This document shows, one piece after another, positions 51,300 to 60,683 of a DNA stretch of 64,000 nt. The notes below the pieces were generated by a model. It was not told the DNA's origin. It saw only the letters and a program-made list of their open reading frames with translations, and did no database searches. The position numbers were made by a program, and so were the translations under genes. The DNA is taken from contig JAURPI010000017.1 of the NCBI GenBank assembly GCA_030835385.1, positions 1-64,000 on the forward strand, given 5' to 3'. This DNA comes from Alphaproteobacteria bacterium. GTDB taxonomy: Bacteria > Pseudomonadota > Alphaproteobacteria > Rhodospirillales > Rhodospirillaceae. Position 1 is the stretch's first letter; each line of letters opens with the position of its first letter.

Positions 51300-52343
51300 T
51301 TATAGAGGCTCAAAAAATTCAAGGAAAACGCCGTCCGGCGTTGTTACTGAGAATAAGGACACGTCGCCGTACGGCGGCATAGTCACTGTTGTCGGTTTGG
51401 TCATCAGGTGCCCACCCTTCTCAACGATGTCGGACGCGCGCTCGGCGGCATCAGAAACAGGAAAACGCAATGTCAGAATACCGAGATTCGGTGCAACGGC
51501 TCTTGCCGATAAGTCACGCCCCTCTAACCCGTCCCATTCGACAAATTCGACACGACCGGTCTCGCCGCCGACAGGGTGCATAATCGCCGATTTCAATGGC
51601 GTTGACGTGACCAAATTCATGGGCAGACCGAAGTTGTTGGCATCTGCCCGGGCAGCCGGTGAGTTGCCGATCGACATAGACACAAACCCGAGAACATCTT
51701 CATAAAAAGCGACTGTCGCATCACGGTCCTTCACGATCTGCATTGAATTGAAGGGCCGACTTAATTTTTTGATATTGGCCCATCCGGGCAGGCCGGGCAC
51801 AACACGCTCATAGACACCAAAATTAATGCTATCAGGGCCGCGCAACACGACATTGCGCAAACGCCTCTCTGGCCCCAGGTAAAGCGTGACCGGATCGTTA
51901 TACCCAGTCCATTGGTACCTGCGTGCGTCCGCGAAGTTCTTGTCTACTCCCCGTGATCTGAGCAGAAGTGACAAGAACCCTCCGGTATCCCATGACTGGG
52001 CACTTGACCGGATCTGCACCTGTTCTGCACCTGAGAATTGGACCAGACGAACCAGCCCCTGGGGCTCACCTGGATTCTGAAGAACGATAGCTTTTGCCGA
52101 TACGTTTTTGTCTAGATCCCATGCTTCGAGCTGTCTGCGTTCTACAGTGCCAGCATGAACCGCGCGCCACCCCGCAATATCTTCCAGCTGGGATTGCCAT
52201 TCCAACGCATTGCTGACGCTCAGCACCGCCTCTTGCCAGCCTACATCAAGGTCCAGCGGCCACGCTTCCTCAGCCTGGGCGGCACCCCAGACCGCGAAAA
52301 GGCTGATCAAAAATACAATGAATCTTAGTCTCACATGCCTCAT
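51300..52343 (-). CDS. Secreted VOC (glyoxalase-like) protein
   Basis: 347 residues from ATG at 52343, which gives a Sec signal (MRHVRLRFIVFLISLFAVWGAAQA); a start 24 codons upstream would bury it. The N-terminal half is a divergent VOC-like module; the C-terminal half is a clearer one (DRDATVAFYEDVLGFVSMSIGN, LTLRFPVSDAAERASDIVEKGGHLMTKP, FSVTTPDGVFLEFFEPL). A metal-dependent lyase, isomerase or dioxygenase activity is possible. Export would place it with the two Tat-exported DUF1838 proteins encoded just downstream. Confidence 0.75.
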   Translation of the reverse strand: MRHVRLRFIVFLISLFAVWGAAQAEEAWPLDLDVGWQEAVLSVSNALEWQSQLEDIAGWRAVHAGTVERRQLEAWDLDKNVSAKAIVLQNPGEPQGLVRLVQFSGAEQVQIRSSAQSWDTGGFLSLLLRSRGVDKNFADARRYQWTGYNDPVTLYLGPERRLRNVVLRGPDSINFGVYERVVPGLPGWANIKKLSRPFNSMQIVKDRDATVAFYEDVLGFVSMSIGNSPAARADANNFGLPMNLVTSTPLKSAIMHPVGGETGRVEFVEWDGLEGRDLSARAVAPNLGILTLRFPVSDAAERASDIVEKGGHLMTKPTTVTMPPYGDVSLFSVTTPDGVFLEFFEPL

Positions 52344-52501
52344 TTCGCACCCCGTCTGGTCAATTTGGCTCAAGCCTAACCGGCGGCAGACCCCATGCAC
52401 AATGGCAGGCCACATAGATTATTGATTTGCGTTTGACCTTGCGCTGAGCAGCCATTTCGTCGTCCAATTGGTCCAAATCAGATCAGGGAACACATGGTAT
52501 C

Positions 52502-53568: not shown

Positions 53569-55104
53569 CTAAGCTTTTCCGGTTAACAGTGAAGGATTAA
53601 ACCATCTGCCGGACTCTACAGCTGGGAAGCACCTTTGTGTTAAAGTAAAGGCGTAGGGGTCAACTGGCCATACTTGACCTACATCTGCGCTGTGCACAAT
53701 TTCATCAACCCCCTCAGGAACGACTAGAATTATAAAATCCAGGGCCAATCTCGTGCGAGTGCGAGGCGGTGTCGCCCTATGTTGTACCGCGTTAGCATCA
53801 AATATAACCAACGATCCTGCGGGGCCTTGAACCTGCTTAGTACCTGAGCCATCTGCTGCCTCATATTCGAACGCGCCATCCCCGTCGGCCACATCGCCCA
53901 GATAAAGCAAGCCTCGGAAAATACCGGCCGGACAGTGATCTCGATGAAATTTCTGCGGCCCAACACCGTCACCCTTATGAACAGCTGACTCTACAGCACG
54001 CACATTGATGATTGAAAAACGAGAACCGACAAGTGATCGAATGGTGTCACCAATTGAACCCTTAACAAAAACGTTGTGCAAAAGCCTCAAACCGTCATGG
54101 TCTACGGCACCATATTTGATTTGGGGGTTGAATTTTGGATAGTCAGGGAATGGTGGTGCATGTGCCCAGTCAGCCTTTGGCTTGTTGCAAACATAGTTCT
54201 CAAATTGGCTAAAAGAGGCTTGTAAAGTCGCGACTTGCCCATCATCAAGAACCTGAAAGACTTTAGACACCCCCATCTGTGAAATAGGTGGCGATCCTTT
54301 TTGCCCACTCAATCTCTCAACCCACTTTTTGTATCTTAGCGTCCTGTCCGCGGAACGACTGTACAACCACTGGTGGGCAATTCTCCCTAGAGAAATAGAC
54401 GTATATTTTGGATCAGCGTGCACACCATCGAAATCATAGTCCGATTTTAAGCAGCCATGCTTATCGGCCAAATAATCATTGGATCTACAGAACATGACCT
54501 TGTTGTTTGATGCGTACTGAATAAGAAGCTCGTTAAACTTTCTGTAGATCGTTCCTCGGAACTCATTCGTGCATGCAACTCCGTTGATCTTCTCGAACTG
54601 AGAGTCGTCTGCTGTGGGAGGGCATACTTCATGCACCACCGCATCCAACCCAAAGGATGTAGCAATCCCCTTTACACTATTGATGTACGACTCAATAACC
54701 AGTCGGAAATCGGAATCAATTTTTTCTTGGTCAATAGTCTCTGCCAGATCAAGAGCGCCAAGATACTTCCGGACATAAATTTCACCGATAAGGAATACCA
54801 CCAACTCACTCTGAAAACCGGTGCCAGTTGCATATTGCTCAGACAGAATAGCACTCTCATCAGTTAAAGCGATCGGCATCCCATCAGGAGTAATTAAAGT
54901 TTCTTTGACCAAATACTGTGCTAGCAGTGGATTTAACTGACCATTTGGAGTGATGTTTGAAGGCTGCACTCCACGCATATAACAAACGCTAGTTGAAAAA
55001 ATCATCCCCAACTCAGACAGTTCAATATTCTTTCGCTTAAAAGCAAGTGCGTGAGAGTCCCCTATAACATGGATAACTTTGGGTTGAACCGGCCTGATCT
55101 CCAT
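53569..55104 (-). CDS. Fusion of SGNH-like domain and 2-oxoglutarate/Fe(II) oxygenase
   Basis: 511 residues. The N-terminal domain (1-240) opens IHVIGDSHALAFKRKN with Ser17 in GDSH, and has an Asp-x-x-His pair (Asp226, His229 in FDGVHADP) as expected for an SGNH hydrolase. The C-terminal domain (about 360-465) reads FHRDHCPAGIFRGLLYLGDV with HxD (His387, Asp389), and QHRATPPRTRTRLALDF with His442 and a following Arg, the facial triad and 2-oxoglutarate Arg of an Fe(II) oxygenase. Both active sites look complete. It starts 4 bases after the GSCFA gene ends. Confidence 0.8.
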   Translation of the reverse strand: MEIRPVQPKVIHVIGDSHALAFKRKNIELSELGMIFSTSVCYMRGVQPSNITPNGQLNPLLAQYLVKETLITPDGMPIALTDESAILSEQYATGTGFQSELVVFLIGEIYVRKYLGALDLAETIDQEKIDSDFRLVIESYINSVKGIATSFGLDAVVHEVCPPTADDSQFEKINGVACTNEFRGTIYRKFNELLIQYASNNKVMFCRSNDYLADKHGCLKSDYDFDGVHADPKYTSISLGRIAHQWLYSRSADRTLRYKKWVERLSGQKGSPPISQMGVSKVFQVLDDGQVATLQASFSQFENYVCNKPKADWAHAPPFPDYPKFNPQIKYGAVDHDGLRLLHNVFVKGSIGDTIRSLVGSRFSIINVRAVESAVHKGDGVGPQKFHRDHCPAGIFRGLLYLGDVADGDGAFEYEAADGSGTKQVQGPAGSLVIFDANAVQHRATPPRTRTRLALDFIILVVPEGVDEIVHSADVGQVWPVDPYAFTLTQRCFPAVESGRWFNPSLLTGKA

Positions 55105-55107
55105 ACG

Positions 55108-56220
55108 TCAGTCCGCCTTCTGCTTTGTGAGATATGCATTCCAAATATTCTCTTCCTCACACACTGGATCAACTTCGTCGCTTTCTTTTTGTTCGTCGGC
55201 GACCATAATTTCCGGGGGTGAAAGACCAATGGAGATAATGGGTTCTTCAGCCGCCCCTGGTACAAAGCGCTTTTGAAACTGCTGCATTACACGATCAACC
55301 CCAAGCTCACTGATTGATCGCATGTCTGCAGCAAAGTTCTCAGTAATGCAGAACGGGTTCATAACGATCTCGTAGGATGGAAAATACGTTACGGGCGCAT
55401 CCGTGTCTGGCTGCTCTGAAACAACCTGTGCGATCGCCTGCCGCAGCAATGCCTTTGAATAAAGCGTCGCCTCAACAGCGGACACCAACGTATAGGTGGC
55501 AACCAGTGGAACCGGTGACAGAGTCAGCACAATTGAGAGCTTCGGATTAATCTCTCGCAGCAAGTCGATACTCTCTCGGAGTTCGCTGACCACTTCAAGC
55601 AATGTTGAATTGTGAAAAGTGTGCTTGGACGTATCAAACGCACCAAAACCGCAACCAGGCGCAGATGGAAACGTGATCTCAGTTTCTTTATCGATCCATT
55701 GCTCAGTTAACCCAAGCGTGAATGTAAAAACTGTCGCTCTCTCCAATAAAGTCTTCACGTTAGACAAGTGGGCTTCGTCATCAGCGCGCAACACATCAAC
55801 AGAGCTGTAGCTAAGAACGCTGGGGCGGAAAAGATTGCGGTATCGCCGATTTTCGTCTTGAGCTACTGGCGGATCTATAGCTTGCTTGCCCGTAACGCGC
55901 CGCAATAATTGGGCGAGATGCCTAGTCGTGTAAATGTTCCCGTATCGCAAAGAAAAAATCGCAGATGATTCCTCGCGCACCTCATTGTCTTCAGAGCTAA
56001 CACGATCATCTGAGAACAAATATGTTAAGCCTGAGGTGCGGATAAACGTGGCTATCCTCGCCGCGAAACAACTGCCCGCAGATATAATTTTGTCCTCTGG
56101 TCCAATAGAAAGACGCGGATCTGGCTCAAGGTAGATATCGCCGTTACGCCCACTTAGCTTCTTGAAAAAGGCGCGGTATGGCAGGTCATTGTACGGGCAT
56201 GTTTGGTAGGCGTTGGACAT
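55108..56220 (-). CDS. GSCFA-domain protein
   Basis: 370 residues. The family hallmark GSCFA is visible in KIISAGSCFAARIATFIRTSGL (about 47-68), with IYTTRHLAQLLRRVTG, FTLGLTEQWIDKETEITFPSAPGCG and LSIVLTLSPVPL, all landmarks of GSCFA proteins, which are SGNH-like and often part of polysaccharide or glycan modification loci. Together with the fused SGNH/oxygenase gene (3-base gap) it makes a two-gene unit. The codon choice looks less G+C-rich than in the flanking core genes; this is by eye. Confidence 0.85.
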   Translation of the reverse strand: MSNAYQTCPYNDLPYRAFFKKLSGRNGDIYLEPDPRLSIGPEDKIISAGSCFAARIATFIRTSGLTYLFSDDRVSSEDNEVREESSAIFSLRYGNIYTTRHLAQLLRRVTGKQAIDPPVAQDENRRYRNLFRPSVLSYSSVDVLRADDEAHLSNVKTLLERATVFTFTLGLTEQWIDKETEITFPSAPGCGFGAFDTSKHTFHNSTLLEVVSELRESIDLLREINPKLSIVLTLSPVPLVATYTLVSAVEATLYSKALLRQAIAQVVSEQPDTDAPVTYFPSYEIVMNPFCITENFAADMRSISELGVDRVMQQFQKRFVPGAAEEPIISIGLSPPEIMVADEQKESDEVDPVCEEENIWNAYLTKQKAD

Positions 56221-60065: not shown

Positions 60066-60683
60066 TTAAATGCTGAGCGACCTATCACTGGCCGCAACAA
60101 ACGCCGCCCTTAGGGCTTCAAAGTCTTTCACCGCTTGAAACTGGGGAAACTCATCGATCACAGTTTGAGGAGCGTGAAACAGGATTCCAACATCGGCCTC
60201 ACTCAACATTGTCGTATCATTGTATGAGTCTCCCGCTGCGATGACGCGGTAGTTAAGTGAGTGAAACGCTTTAACTGATGCGCGCTTCGGGTCTGGCTGC
60301 CGCAACTTATAATCAACGACTTTGCCATCCTCGTCCGTAATCAGACGATGACAAAACAGCGTTGGCCATTTGAGTTGGCGCATAAGAGGTTCTGAAAATT
60401 CGTAAAACGTATCGGAAAGAATAATGATTTGGAATCTTTCCCGAAGCCAATCAAGAAAGTCCGCCGCACCCGGAAGGGGTTCTAATGTCCCAATAACGTC
60501 TTGGATATCTGGGAGACGTAGACCGTGCTGATCGAGCAGAGACAATCGCTGCTTCATCAACACATTGTAATCAGGAATATCGCGTGTGGTCGCGCGCAAT
60601 TCGTCTATGCCAGTCTTGTCAGCGAACGCGATCCATATTTCTGGGATGAGAACACCCTCTAGGTCGAGGCAGGCAAGTTCCAA
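60066..60683 (-). CDS. thrH: ThrH-like HAD phosphatase (phosphoserine phosphatase / homoserine kinase-type)
   Basis: 205 residues of the HAD superfamily. The opening ACLDLEGVLIPEIWIAFADKTG has the nucleophile Asp, then IILSDTFYEFSEPLMRQLKWPTLFCH and AAGDSYNDTTMLSEADVGILFHAP carry motifs II-IV. The pattern DLEGVLIPE is typical of ThrH, which has phosphoserine phosphatase activity and can transfer phosphate to homoserine. The gene has its own space; the 206 bases upstream contain no gene, only a tRNA-like fragment (see rejected items). Confidence 0.85.
   Translation of the reverse strand: MELACLDLEGVLIPEIWIAFADKTGIDELRATTRDIPDYNVLMKQRLSLLDQHGLRLPDIQDVIGTLEPLPGAADFLDWLRERFQIIILSDTFYEFSEPLMRQLKWPTLFCHRLITDEDGKVVDYKLRQPDPKRASVKAFHSLNYRVIAAGDSYNDTTMLSEADVGILFHAPQTVIDEFPQFQAVKDFEALRAAFVAASDRSLSI

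What the first reader, a model, noticed from the sequence alone, without database searches (positions are those of the whole stretch)
53569..56220. Two-gene unit: SGNH plus 2OG-Fe(II) oxygenase fusion with a GSCFA protein
The fusion keeps both catalytic sets, Ser17/Asp226/His229 and His387/Asp389/His442. A hydrolase or acyltransferase of SGNH type joined to an oxygenase in one chain, and made with a second SGNH-related protein, is unusual. A role in modifying a surface glycan or a small metabolite, for instance de-acetylation followed by hydroxylation, is possible.
Basis: partly seen in the sequence, partly recalled or inferred. Interest (0 to 1): 0.75.

Follow-up and report, generated by a model that had tools for sequence, protein, structure and literature searches.

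The report
Oxygenase fused to a two-protein acyltransferase
An uncultured bacterium carries a small two-gene unit that probably adds a hydroxyl group to a molecule and then caps it with an acetyl-type group, and relatives of one of its proteins seem to work in such pairs more widely.

Summary
Both genes lie on the minus strand, 3 nt apart: a GSCFA protein (55108-56220), then a 511-aa SGNH plus 2OG-Fe(II) oxygenase fusion (53569-55104) with both catalytic sets in place. It is no assembly error: nine such fusions were found in eight genomes, each beside or near a GSCFA gene.

"De-acetylation then hydroxylation" is probably backwards. In the pseudotetraivprolide pathway an SGNH protein (PipF) and a GSCFA protein (PipG), with PipD, are needed in vivo to O-acetylate the hydroxyl made by a separate 2OG dioxygenase. 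Here an SGNH domain of the GSCFA-partner family and an oxygenase of another family share one chain. I read the unit as a hydroxylate-then-acylate enzyme (inferred; no assay).

Support: 24 of 45 surveyed GSCFA loci pair with an SGNH partner, one as a single chain; one relative holds two fusion copies with reciprocal active-site loss; the unit is absent as a block in 3 of 7 genomes of the genus; the fusion ORF alone was replaced between nearest relatives. Against: four of nine fusions lost the iron ligands.

By-product: six surveyed GSCFA genes (one family of bacteria) sit beside WcbI-family genes; WcbI was reported to need an unidentified partner.

Substrate and acyl donor are unknown; a glycan role is not supported in the window.

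The parts
55108..56220 (-). GSCFA gene, 370 aa, first gene of the unit
   Evidence: ORF; PF08885 159.3 bits, cut-off 25
56068..56070 (-). GSCFA Cys51 (matches PipG Cys47 by motif)
   Evidence: Codon checked; C in 37 of 37 aligned rows
55159..55161 (-). GSCFA Cys354, beyond the Pfam match
   Evidence: Codon checked; C in 37 of 37 aligned rows
53569..55104 (-). SGNH plus 2OG-Fe(II) oxygenase fusion gene, 511 aa, second gene of the unit
   Evidence: ORF; recurs in three other genomes of the genus at 57-63% identity
54319..55104 (-). SGNH domain, residues 1 to about 262
   Evidence: Profile comparison with 18 stand-alone SGNH partners of GSCFA: probability 95.7, E 8e-9
55054..55056 (-). Ser17, presumed nucleophile
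   Evidence: Codon checked; S in 37 of 39 rows
54418..54429 (-). Asp226-Gly-Val-His229
   Evidence: Codons checked; D in 38 and H in 39 of 39 rows
53596..54294 (-). 2OG-Fe(II) oxygenase domain, residues about 271-503
   Evidence: Fold match Z 13.2-14.5 in the rows shown
53938..53946 (-). His387-Arg-Asp389, iron ligands
   Evidence: Codons checked; invariant in the 5 rows of A8
53779..53781 (-). His442, third iron ligand
   Evidence: Codon checked; invariant in the 5 rows of A8
53749..53751 (-). Arg452, presumed 2OG-binding residue
   Evidence: Codon checked; invariant in the 5 rows of A8

Best explanation
The two genes make one cytosolic modification enzyme. The oxygenase domain hydroxylates a substrate with O2, Fe(II) and 2-oxoglutarate. 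The SGNH domain (S17, D226, H229), together with the GSCFA protein, then transfers an acyl group, most likely acetyl, onto that hydroxyl. GSCFA is the constant subunit; its C51 corresponds by motif to PipG C47, which matters in vivo, and might hold the acyl group as a thioester (speculative). Shown here: gene structure, residues, linkage to GSCFA, kinship of the SGNH domain with stand-alone SGNH partners of GSCFA, presence or absence as a block, replacement of the fusion alone. From the literature: PipD, PipF and PipG are needed for O-acetylation of a hydroxylated natural product. Inferred: that this unit transfers rather than hydrolyses, that both steps use one substrate, and the order. Unknown: substrate, acyl donor, and whether a third subunit is needed.
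For: [quoted passage not shown] PipF S18 and H211 and PipG C47 matter in vivo; PipE adds the hydroxyl before. 2) Streptomyces plasmid loci L080 and L082 have NRPS-type gene, GSCFA, an SGNH ORF and a TauD dioxygenase in order, the gene set tabled for miramide/rimosamide/detoxin (PMC9503745, passages). 3) Chain of kinship: window-clade SGNH domain (5 fusions) against 18 stand-alone GSCFA-adjacent SGNH proteins, probability 95.7, E 8e-9; those 18 against the PipF-like proteins, 98.1, E 9e-14; controls with GSCFA, WcbI and the oxygenase domain 0.1-7.7. 4) 24 of 45 surveyed GSCFA loci have a same-strand SGNH partner within 700 bp; no hit in reversed sequences; one is a single GSCFA-SGNH chain. 5) GSCFA also sits beside WcbI, a CoA-binding putative acetyltransferase (PMC4104973, passages). 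6) In G224 two fusion copies by one GSCFA show reciprocal loss: one keeps only the iron site, the other only the SGNH site. 7) GSCFA also occurs near unfused oxygenase genes. 8) Fusion and GSCFA are present or absent together at this locus in 7 of 7 genomes of the genus.
Against: No assay. In 4 of 9 fusions (L004, L006, L008, L102) the iron ligands are gone while the domain remains, so the domain can serve without oxygenase chemistry. The direct comparison of the window clade with the PipF-like proteins is not significant (probability 9.1), and a clean profile of 18 stand-alone partners does not pick up the window protein itself though it picks up L008, L102 and weakly L025, L006 and L002; an earlier, stronger-looking number came from a profile that held a fusion. 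PipE is a TauD-type enzyme; this domain is of another 2OG family. No relative of the SpcZ-type third protein was found (no positive control). In the host family only 3 of 25 non-fusion GSCFA loci have an SGNH partner. PMC12828459 also reports no acetylation in E. coli given pipDFG (passage). SGNH proteins are often esterases. The SGNH half of the model is poor.
Confidence: 0.45

Rival explanations
1. Esterase plus hydroxylase: the SGNH domain (with GSCFA) removes an acyl group and the oxygenase then hydroxylates the freed molecule.
For: Intact Ser-Asp-His in the SGNH domain; the GSCFA model resembles SGNH acetyl esterases.
Against: Genetics of PipF/PipG point to acetylation (PMC12828459, passages); GSCFA also sits beside CoA-binding WcbI; the block-III Asn of hydrolases is not conserved in this partner family.
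Confidence: 0.15
2. The unit is an acyltransferase in which the C-terminal domain mainly shapes the substrate site; oxygenase activity is dispensable, or is used for a step unrelated to the acyl transfer.
For: Iron ligands lost in 4 of 9 fusions while the domain and its WP-x-DP motif remain.
Against: The four genus members and one G224 copy keep all iron ligands and the Arg; in G224 the iron site survives in exactly the copy that lost the SGNH site.
Confidence: 0.25
3. Protein modification: the oxygenase hydroxylates a protein residue, as prolyl hydroxylases do, and the SGNH-GSCFA pair acylates it.
For: Fold matches include prolyl 4-hydroxylases and PHD2.
Against: Fold matches of similar Z include small-molecule enzymes (AsqJ, SnoN); a shared fold shows no substrate; sugar-gene context in G224.
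Confidence: 0.08
4. Artefact of assembly or chance reading frame.
For: None beyond the weak Pfam scores.
Against: Nine fusions in eight genomes with conserved catalytic residues and GSCFA beside them.
Confidence: 0.01

Closest known systems
PipF/PipG (with PipD) O-acetylation complex of pseudotetraivprolide biosynthesis; homologous gene sets of detoxin, rimosamide and miramide clusters
   Same: SGNH protein with Ser, Asp and His paired with a GSCFA protein carrying the motif Cys; tied to a 2OG dioxygenase that makes the acceptor hydroxyl
   Different: There the dioxygenase is a separate gene (TauD-type in the Streptomyces loci) and PipD is needed; here the oxygenase is fused and of another 2OG family, no NRPS was seen beside the unit, no PipD-type partner was found, and the SGNH link runs through intermediates
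GSCFA family PF08885
   Same: The window protein is a clear member
   Different: R55 where His is commonest (26 of 37 rows); the 2022 review lists no known activity for the family (PMC9487903, passages)
WcbI family PF18588, CoA-binding putative polysaccharide acetyltransferase
   Same: Its genes are also found directly beside GSCFA genes
   Different: No profile match to the SGNH domain or partners; it would take the place of the SGNH partner
Prolyl 4-hydroxylase/PHD2-type and AsqJ/SnoN-type 2OG oxygenases
   Same: Double-stranded beta-helix fold, H-x-D...H and a distal Arg
   Different: 8-16% identity in the rows shown; below Pfam's cut-off; fused behind an SGNH domain
EvdMO1 (PDB 6ec3)
   Same: Among the Foldseek hits; that it is a two-domain 2OG enzyme of orthosomycin synthesis is recalled
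   Different: Weak global match (rmsd about 20); no SGNH or GSCFA link seen

Membership tests
GSCFA (PF08885) | Match over the curated cut-off (25 bits) | tested here: met
   159.3 bits, residues 44-315, full profile
GSCFA (PF08885) | G-S-C-F-A motif | tested here: met
   Residues 49-53; 37 of 37 aligned rows
SGNH superfamily | Block I Ser in GxS | tested here: met
   G15-D16-S17; S in 37 of 39 rows
SGNH superfamily | Block V DxxH | tested here: met
   D226/H229; 38 and 39 of 39 rows
SGNH superfamily | Block III Asn (oxyanion) | tested here: not met
   E108 in the window by my placement of the block; column mixed (E 7, N 7, G 6 of 39)
SGNH superfamily | Block II Gly | tested here: inconclusive
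   Block not placed in the alignment
SGNH superfamily | Match to a solved SGNH fold | tested here: inconclusive
   Model poor there; the rows shown cover only 271-503
2OG-Fe(II) oxygenase superfamily | HxD...H facial triad and distal Arg or Lys | tested here: met
   H387, D389, H442, R452; invariant in 5 rows of A8
2OG-Fe(II) oxygenase superfamily | Double-stranded beta-helix fold | tested here: met
   Z 13.2-14.5 over 153-205 residues in the rows shown, on a low-confidence model
2OG-Fe(II) oxygenase superfamily | Pfam PF13640 over its cut-off | tested here: not met
   19.1 bits against 27
PipF/PipG-type acetyltransferase complex | Adjacent SGNH and GSCFA genes | tested here: met
   3-nt gap; profiles of both families
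PipF/PipG-type acetyltransferase complex | SGNH subunit homologous to PipF | tested here: inconclusive
   Direct comparison with PipF-like proteins not significant (9.1); significant through stand-alone partners (95.7, then 98.1); PipF itself not at hand
PipF/PipG-type acetyltransferase complex | Third subunit PipD | tested here: inconclusive
   SpcZ-type query found nothing in the genome, no positive control there; that PipD is SpcZ-type is my inference
PipF/PipG-type acetyltransferase complex | Acetyl transfer to a hydroxyl | not testable with these tools
   Needs an assay
Detoxin/rimosamide-like gene cluster | NRPS/PKS genes beside the pair | tested here: not met
   None seen among the ORFs listed at 46-64 kb and the seven proteins scanned

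The most novel reading that the evidence does not exclude
A single-chain hydroxylase-acyltransferase that makes its own acceptor hydroxyl and caps it with the help of GSCFA, where GSCFA is the constant partner of a whole class of two-part acyltransferases (SGNH or WcbI as the other part), and the fused specificity gene is exchanged between strains as a cassette while GSCFA stays in place.
Probability: 0.27. Interest if true: 0.85.

Novelty: new variant of a known kind. Interest (0 to 1): 0.6.

Why it matters
GSCFA was listed in 2022 as an SGNH-clan family without known function (PMC9487903, passages), and of the seven papers that name it in the library only the pseudotetraivprolide paper gave functional data in the passages I saw; three of the seven I know from the listing alone. 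The survey suggests a rule: the main GSCFA type works with an SGNH or a WcbI partner in acyl transfer. That would offer a candidate for the 'unidentified partner' proposed for WcbI (PMC4104973, passages). The fusion makes 'hydroxylate, then acylate' testable with two proteins from a harmless environmental genome.

Tried and rejected
Surface glycan role: rejected as a general claim. I scanned 61 of the 94 neighbour ORFs listed for the 24 pair loci; among the 25 of 49 families displayed, Epimerase, GDP_Man_Dehyd and Glyco_transf_21 each match one. Kept as possible because of G224 and plasmid loci (I opened 8 of 39 plasmid hits, two of them without annotation).

Link to the luciferase-like, glyoxalase and DUF1838 neighbours: rejected, since the unit is absent as a block in three congeners that keep flanking genes.

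dN/dS on the fusion: dS undefined (saturated) in all three comparisons, so I used fourfold sites.

A first profile link between partners and the window protein (E 7e-7) was contaminated: one of its 19 seeds (L102) is itself a fusion. Rebuilt with 18 seeds it misses the window protein; profile-profile comparison gives the link.

PDB sequence search with the fusion: no hit. Phages and plasmids with the fusion protein: no hit. Third subunit: nothing found, inconclusive. No SGNH chain is listed; that shows nothing, since the SGNH half of the model is poor.

Chosen after looking: the GSCFA cut-offs 1e-90 and 1e-60 and the WcbI link, found while inspecting unpaired loci. The 1e-60 cut-off held on the later family loci: 3 of 4 non-fusion loci below it are paired, 0 of 21 above it.

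Print searches: (open-access PMC only) showed no paper on such a fusion; others (WcbI; GSCFA) shared no paper. This is not proof that none exists.
Full report
WHAT IS THERE. Both genes are on the minus strand. GSCFA (370 aa, 55108-56220) comes first; the fusion (511 aa, 53569-55104) starts 3 nt after its stop codon. The named catalytic residues are at the named positions, and R452 fits the 2OG-binding Arg (the role of that Arg is general knowledge of the superfamily). Pfam sees GSCFA clearly (E 1.7e-46) but the fusion only weakly (PF13640 E 0.0026, PF13472 E 0.13); NCBIfam lists neither protein at E 0.1. The highest 19-residue Kyte-Doolittle means are 1.43 and 1.78; I take both proteins as cytosolic (inference).

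STRUCTURE. AlphaFold2 on five and four rows gave weak models (mean pLDDT 56 and 61). The fusion's residues about 271-503 still match 2OG oxygenases (Z 13.2-14.5 in the 50 rows shown: a Shewanella oxygenase, PiuC, P4H, AsqJ, SnoN, PHD2). The GSCFA model's best matches are SGNH acetyl esterases (E 4e-5), with PatB at 6e-3; 7 matches reach E 0.001. In that model C51 starts the helix after strand 44-49, where SGNH proteins carry their nucleophile (recalled).

DISTRIBUTION. Named relatives are MAGs titled Rhodospirillaceae; a marine origin is my guess from their names. Full fusions were found in eight genomes: the window's and three more of the 7 in the genus, G208 of the same family, G224 of the same order with two copies, G394 and G912. 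Genomes with any match: 5 of 297 and 13 of 317 (order), 15 of 385 (class), 10 of 73 (family), 13 of 398 (phylum). The other matches cover one domain or less; I read ORFs of some of them. A GSCFA gene lies directly upstream of a fusion on the same strand in seven of the eight genomes (cut by the contig end in G394, frame broken in G695) and divergent from it in G208.

PRESENCE AND ABSENCE. The flanking luciferase-like gene was found in all seven genomes of the genus (the window's and the six). In G295 and G236 it lies next to the small hydrophobic-protein gene with no unit between; in G269 the unit is missing and the small gene was not found either. More distant GSCFA genes exist elsewhere in G295 and G236.

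EXCHANGE OF THE FUSION ALONE. Against L034 (G245), the closest relative by flanking genes, fourfold-site identity is 55.8-97.4% in 12 other genes of the region and 63.3% in GSCFA, but 25.6% in the fusion, which is saturation. In 60-column windows nucleotide identity is 78-95% through GSCFA, 45-72% through the fusion, and 82-93% past its end; the change falls at the ends of the fusion ORF. In the SGNH-domain tree the window groups with L002 (80/82), while flanking genes are most alike to L034. The best reading is replacement by a divergent homologue while GSCFA was kept. Against L032 and L033 all genes are near saturation, so those comparisons say nothing. The glyoxalase gene (97.4%) shows that exchange also acts elsewhere here.

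ACTIVE SITES ACROSS FUSIONS. SGNH residues are kept in 8 of 9 fusions; iron ligands in 5 of 9 (four genus members and one G224 copy). Lost iron ligands: L004, L006, L008, L102. In the SGNH-domain tree the nine fusions stand on one side of a branch against five stand-alone SGNH proteins (97/97), in two groups that each hold an intact iron site; several branches are long and that grouping is less sure (82/87 for one). An active ancestral oxygenase with repeated losses is the simplest history (inference). In G224 two convergent copies are complementary: one keeps the iron site but has GDES for GDSH and no DxxH; the other keeps GDSH and DGFH but not the iron ligands. They lie with GSCFA near genes for a PfkB/cytidylyltransferase-like (HldE-like), a SIS, two epimerase/dehydratase-like and two methyltransferase proteins.

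THE PAIR IS COMMON. GSCFA was found in 33 of 398 genomes of the phylum sample. I fetched the 45 loci that cover all listed matches except the window's own. A profile built without those loci found an SGNH partner within 700 bp in 17 of 45; iterated without regard to position, 24 of 45, all on the same strand, with no hit in reversed sequences. The 24 come from 18 genomes of seven families, 16 of them from one family, so they are not independent (my count). One (L118) is a single GSCFA-SGNH chain. Of the 32 loci with GSCFA-profile E below 1e-60, 24 are paired; of the other 13, none (cut-off chosen afterwards). Of the 8 unpaired among 30 with E below 1e-90, six have an opposite-strand WcbI-family neighbour (PF18588 E 3e-32 to 6e-19); these six come from five genomes of one family, and three of them share another neighbour too (a HemC-like ORF by my reading), so they may be one inherited locus. 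One (L120) has an SGNH hit 837 bp away, one (L105) lies beside an NRPS-like ORF by my reading. On plasmids a WcbI query, itself taken from a GSCFA locus, found three records; in two a GSCFA gene is adjacent. In the host family GSCFA was found in 31 of 73 genomes; I examined 29 loci, four of them fusion loci. Of the other 25, three have an SGNH partner (3 of 4 with E below 1e-60, 0 of 21 above) and three have an oxygenase-domain gene nearby on the other strand. Of 20 separate loci with unfused oxygenase matches, two have GSCFA nearby.

KINSHIP WITH PipF. Window-clade SGNH domains (5 fusions) against 18 stand-alone partners: probability 95.7, E 8e-9; 18 partners against three PipF-like proteins: 98.1, E 9e-14; window clade against PipF-like directly: 9.1, not significant; controls 0.1-7.7. 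A clean profile of the 18 finds PipF-like proteins (E 9e-17, 4e-15), L008 (7e-7), L102 (3e-5) and, weakly, L025, L006 and L002 (5e-4 to 0.01), but not the window protein; no reversed sequence is hit. In the other direction, fusion profiles searching whole genomes hit two stand-alone partners beside GSCFA (G233, E 3e-6; G859, E 1e-6). In 39 SGNH rows S17 is kept in 37, D226 in 38, H229 in 39. In 37 GSCFA rows C51 and C354 are both invariant; C354 lies outside the Pfam match.

HOW IT LIKELY WORKS. In PMC12828459 (passages, not the whole text) PipD, PipF and PipG are needed for the last O-acetylation, after PipE has hydroxylated a proline; PipF S18 and H211 and PipG C47 matter in vivo. Streptomyces loci L080 and L082 have the order NRPS-type gene, GSCFA, SGNH ORF, TauD dioxygenase, the gene set tabled in PMC9503745 (passages), so I call their SGNH proteins PipF-like by position and motif. 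I conclude that the window unit is an acyltransferase of this pair type whose SGNH subunit has been fused to an oxygenase, and that hydroxylation precedes acylation (inferred).

WHAT WEAKENS IT. Iron-site losses; a SGNH link to PipF only through intermediates; no known substrate, donor or third subunit; no acetylation in E. coli with pipDFG in the same paper; no assay.

VERDICT. Real, conserved within the genus and rare outside it; new variant of a known kind; interest 0.6.

Noticed in passing
L113, L115, L117, L125, L126, L127, L083: GSCFA genes lie directly beside WcbI-family genes (PF18588). WcbI was reported to bind CoA but to need an unidentified partner for acetyl transfer (PMC4104973, passages); GSCFA is a candidate. 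The six survey cases are from one family of bacteria.
   Followed up: partly
window 53569-55104 against L034: The fusion ORF alone was replaced by a divergent homologue between nearest relatives, with breakpoints at its ends.
   Followed up: yes
L118:239-2014 (G770): One chain of 591 aa holds GSCFA followed by an SGNH domain, a natural fusion of the two partners.
   Followed up: yes
window 55159-55161 (C354): A second Cys beyond the Pfam match, followed by acidic residues, is invariant in 37 of 37 aligned GSCFA rows.
   Followed up: no
L100:4299-7999 (G023): A stand-alone oxygenase ORF is followed on the same strand by an ORF with two GSCFA motifs in tandem.
   Followed up: partly
L010:1039-2910 (G616): A 623-aa ORF looks like an oxygenase joined to a methyltransferase, by my reading of the translation.
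   Followed up: no
L009 and L017: TPR-like proteins end in an SGNH-like stretch with a GEIDCR motif, by my reading; more distant relatives.
   Followed up: no
window 51300-52415: The glyoxalase-like gene is 97.4% identical to L034 at fourfold sites while most neighbours are near 56-70%: a recent separate exchange.
   Followed up: no
L033:8872-10000 (G695): The GSCFA reading frame is broken in this MAG; assembly error or real loss not settled.
   Followed up: no
G233: One genome of the family has 11 counted GSCFA matches.
   Followed up: no
window 60066-60683: ThrH-type phosphoserine phosphatase/homoserine phosphotransferase, over its NCBIfam cut-off.
   Followed up: no
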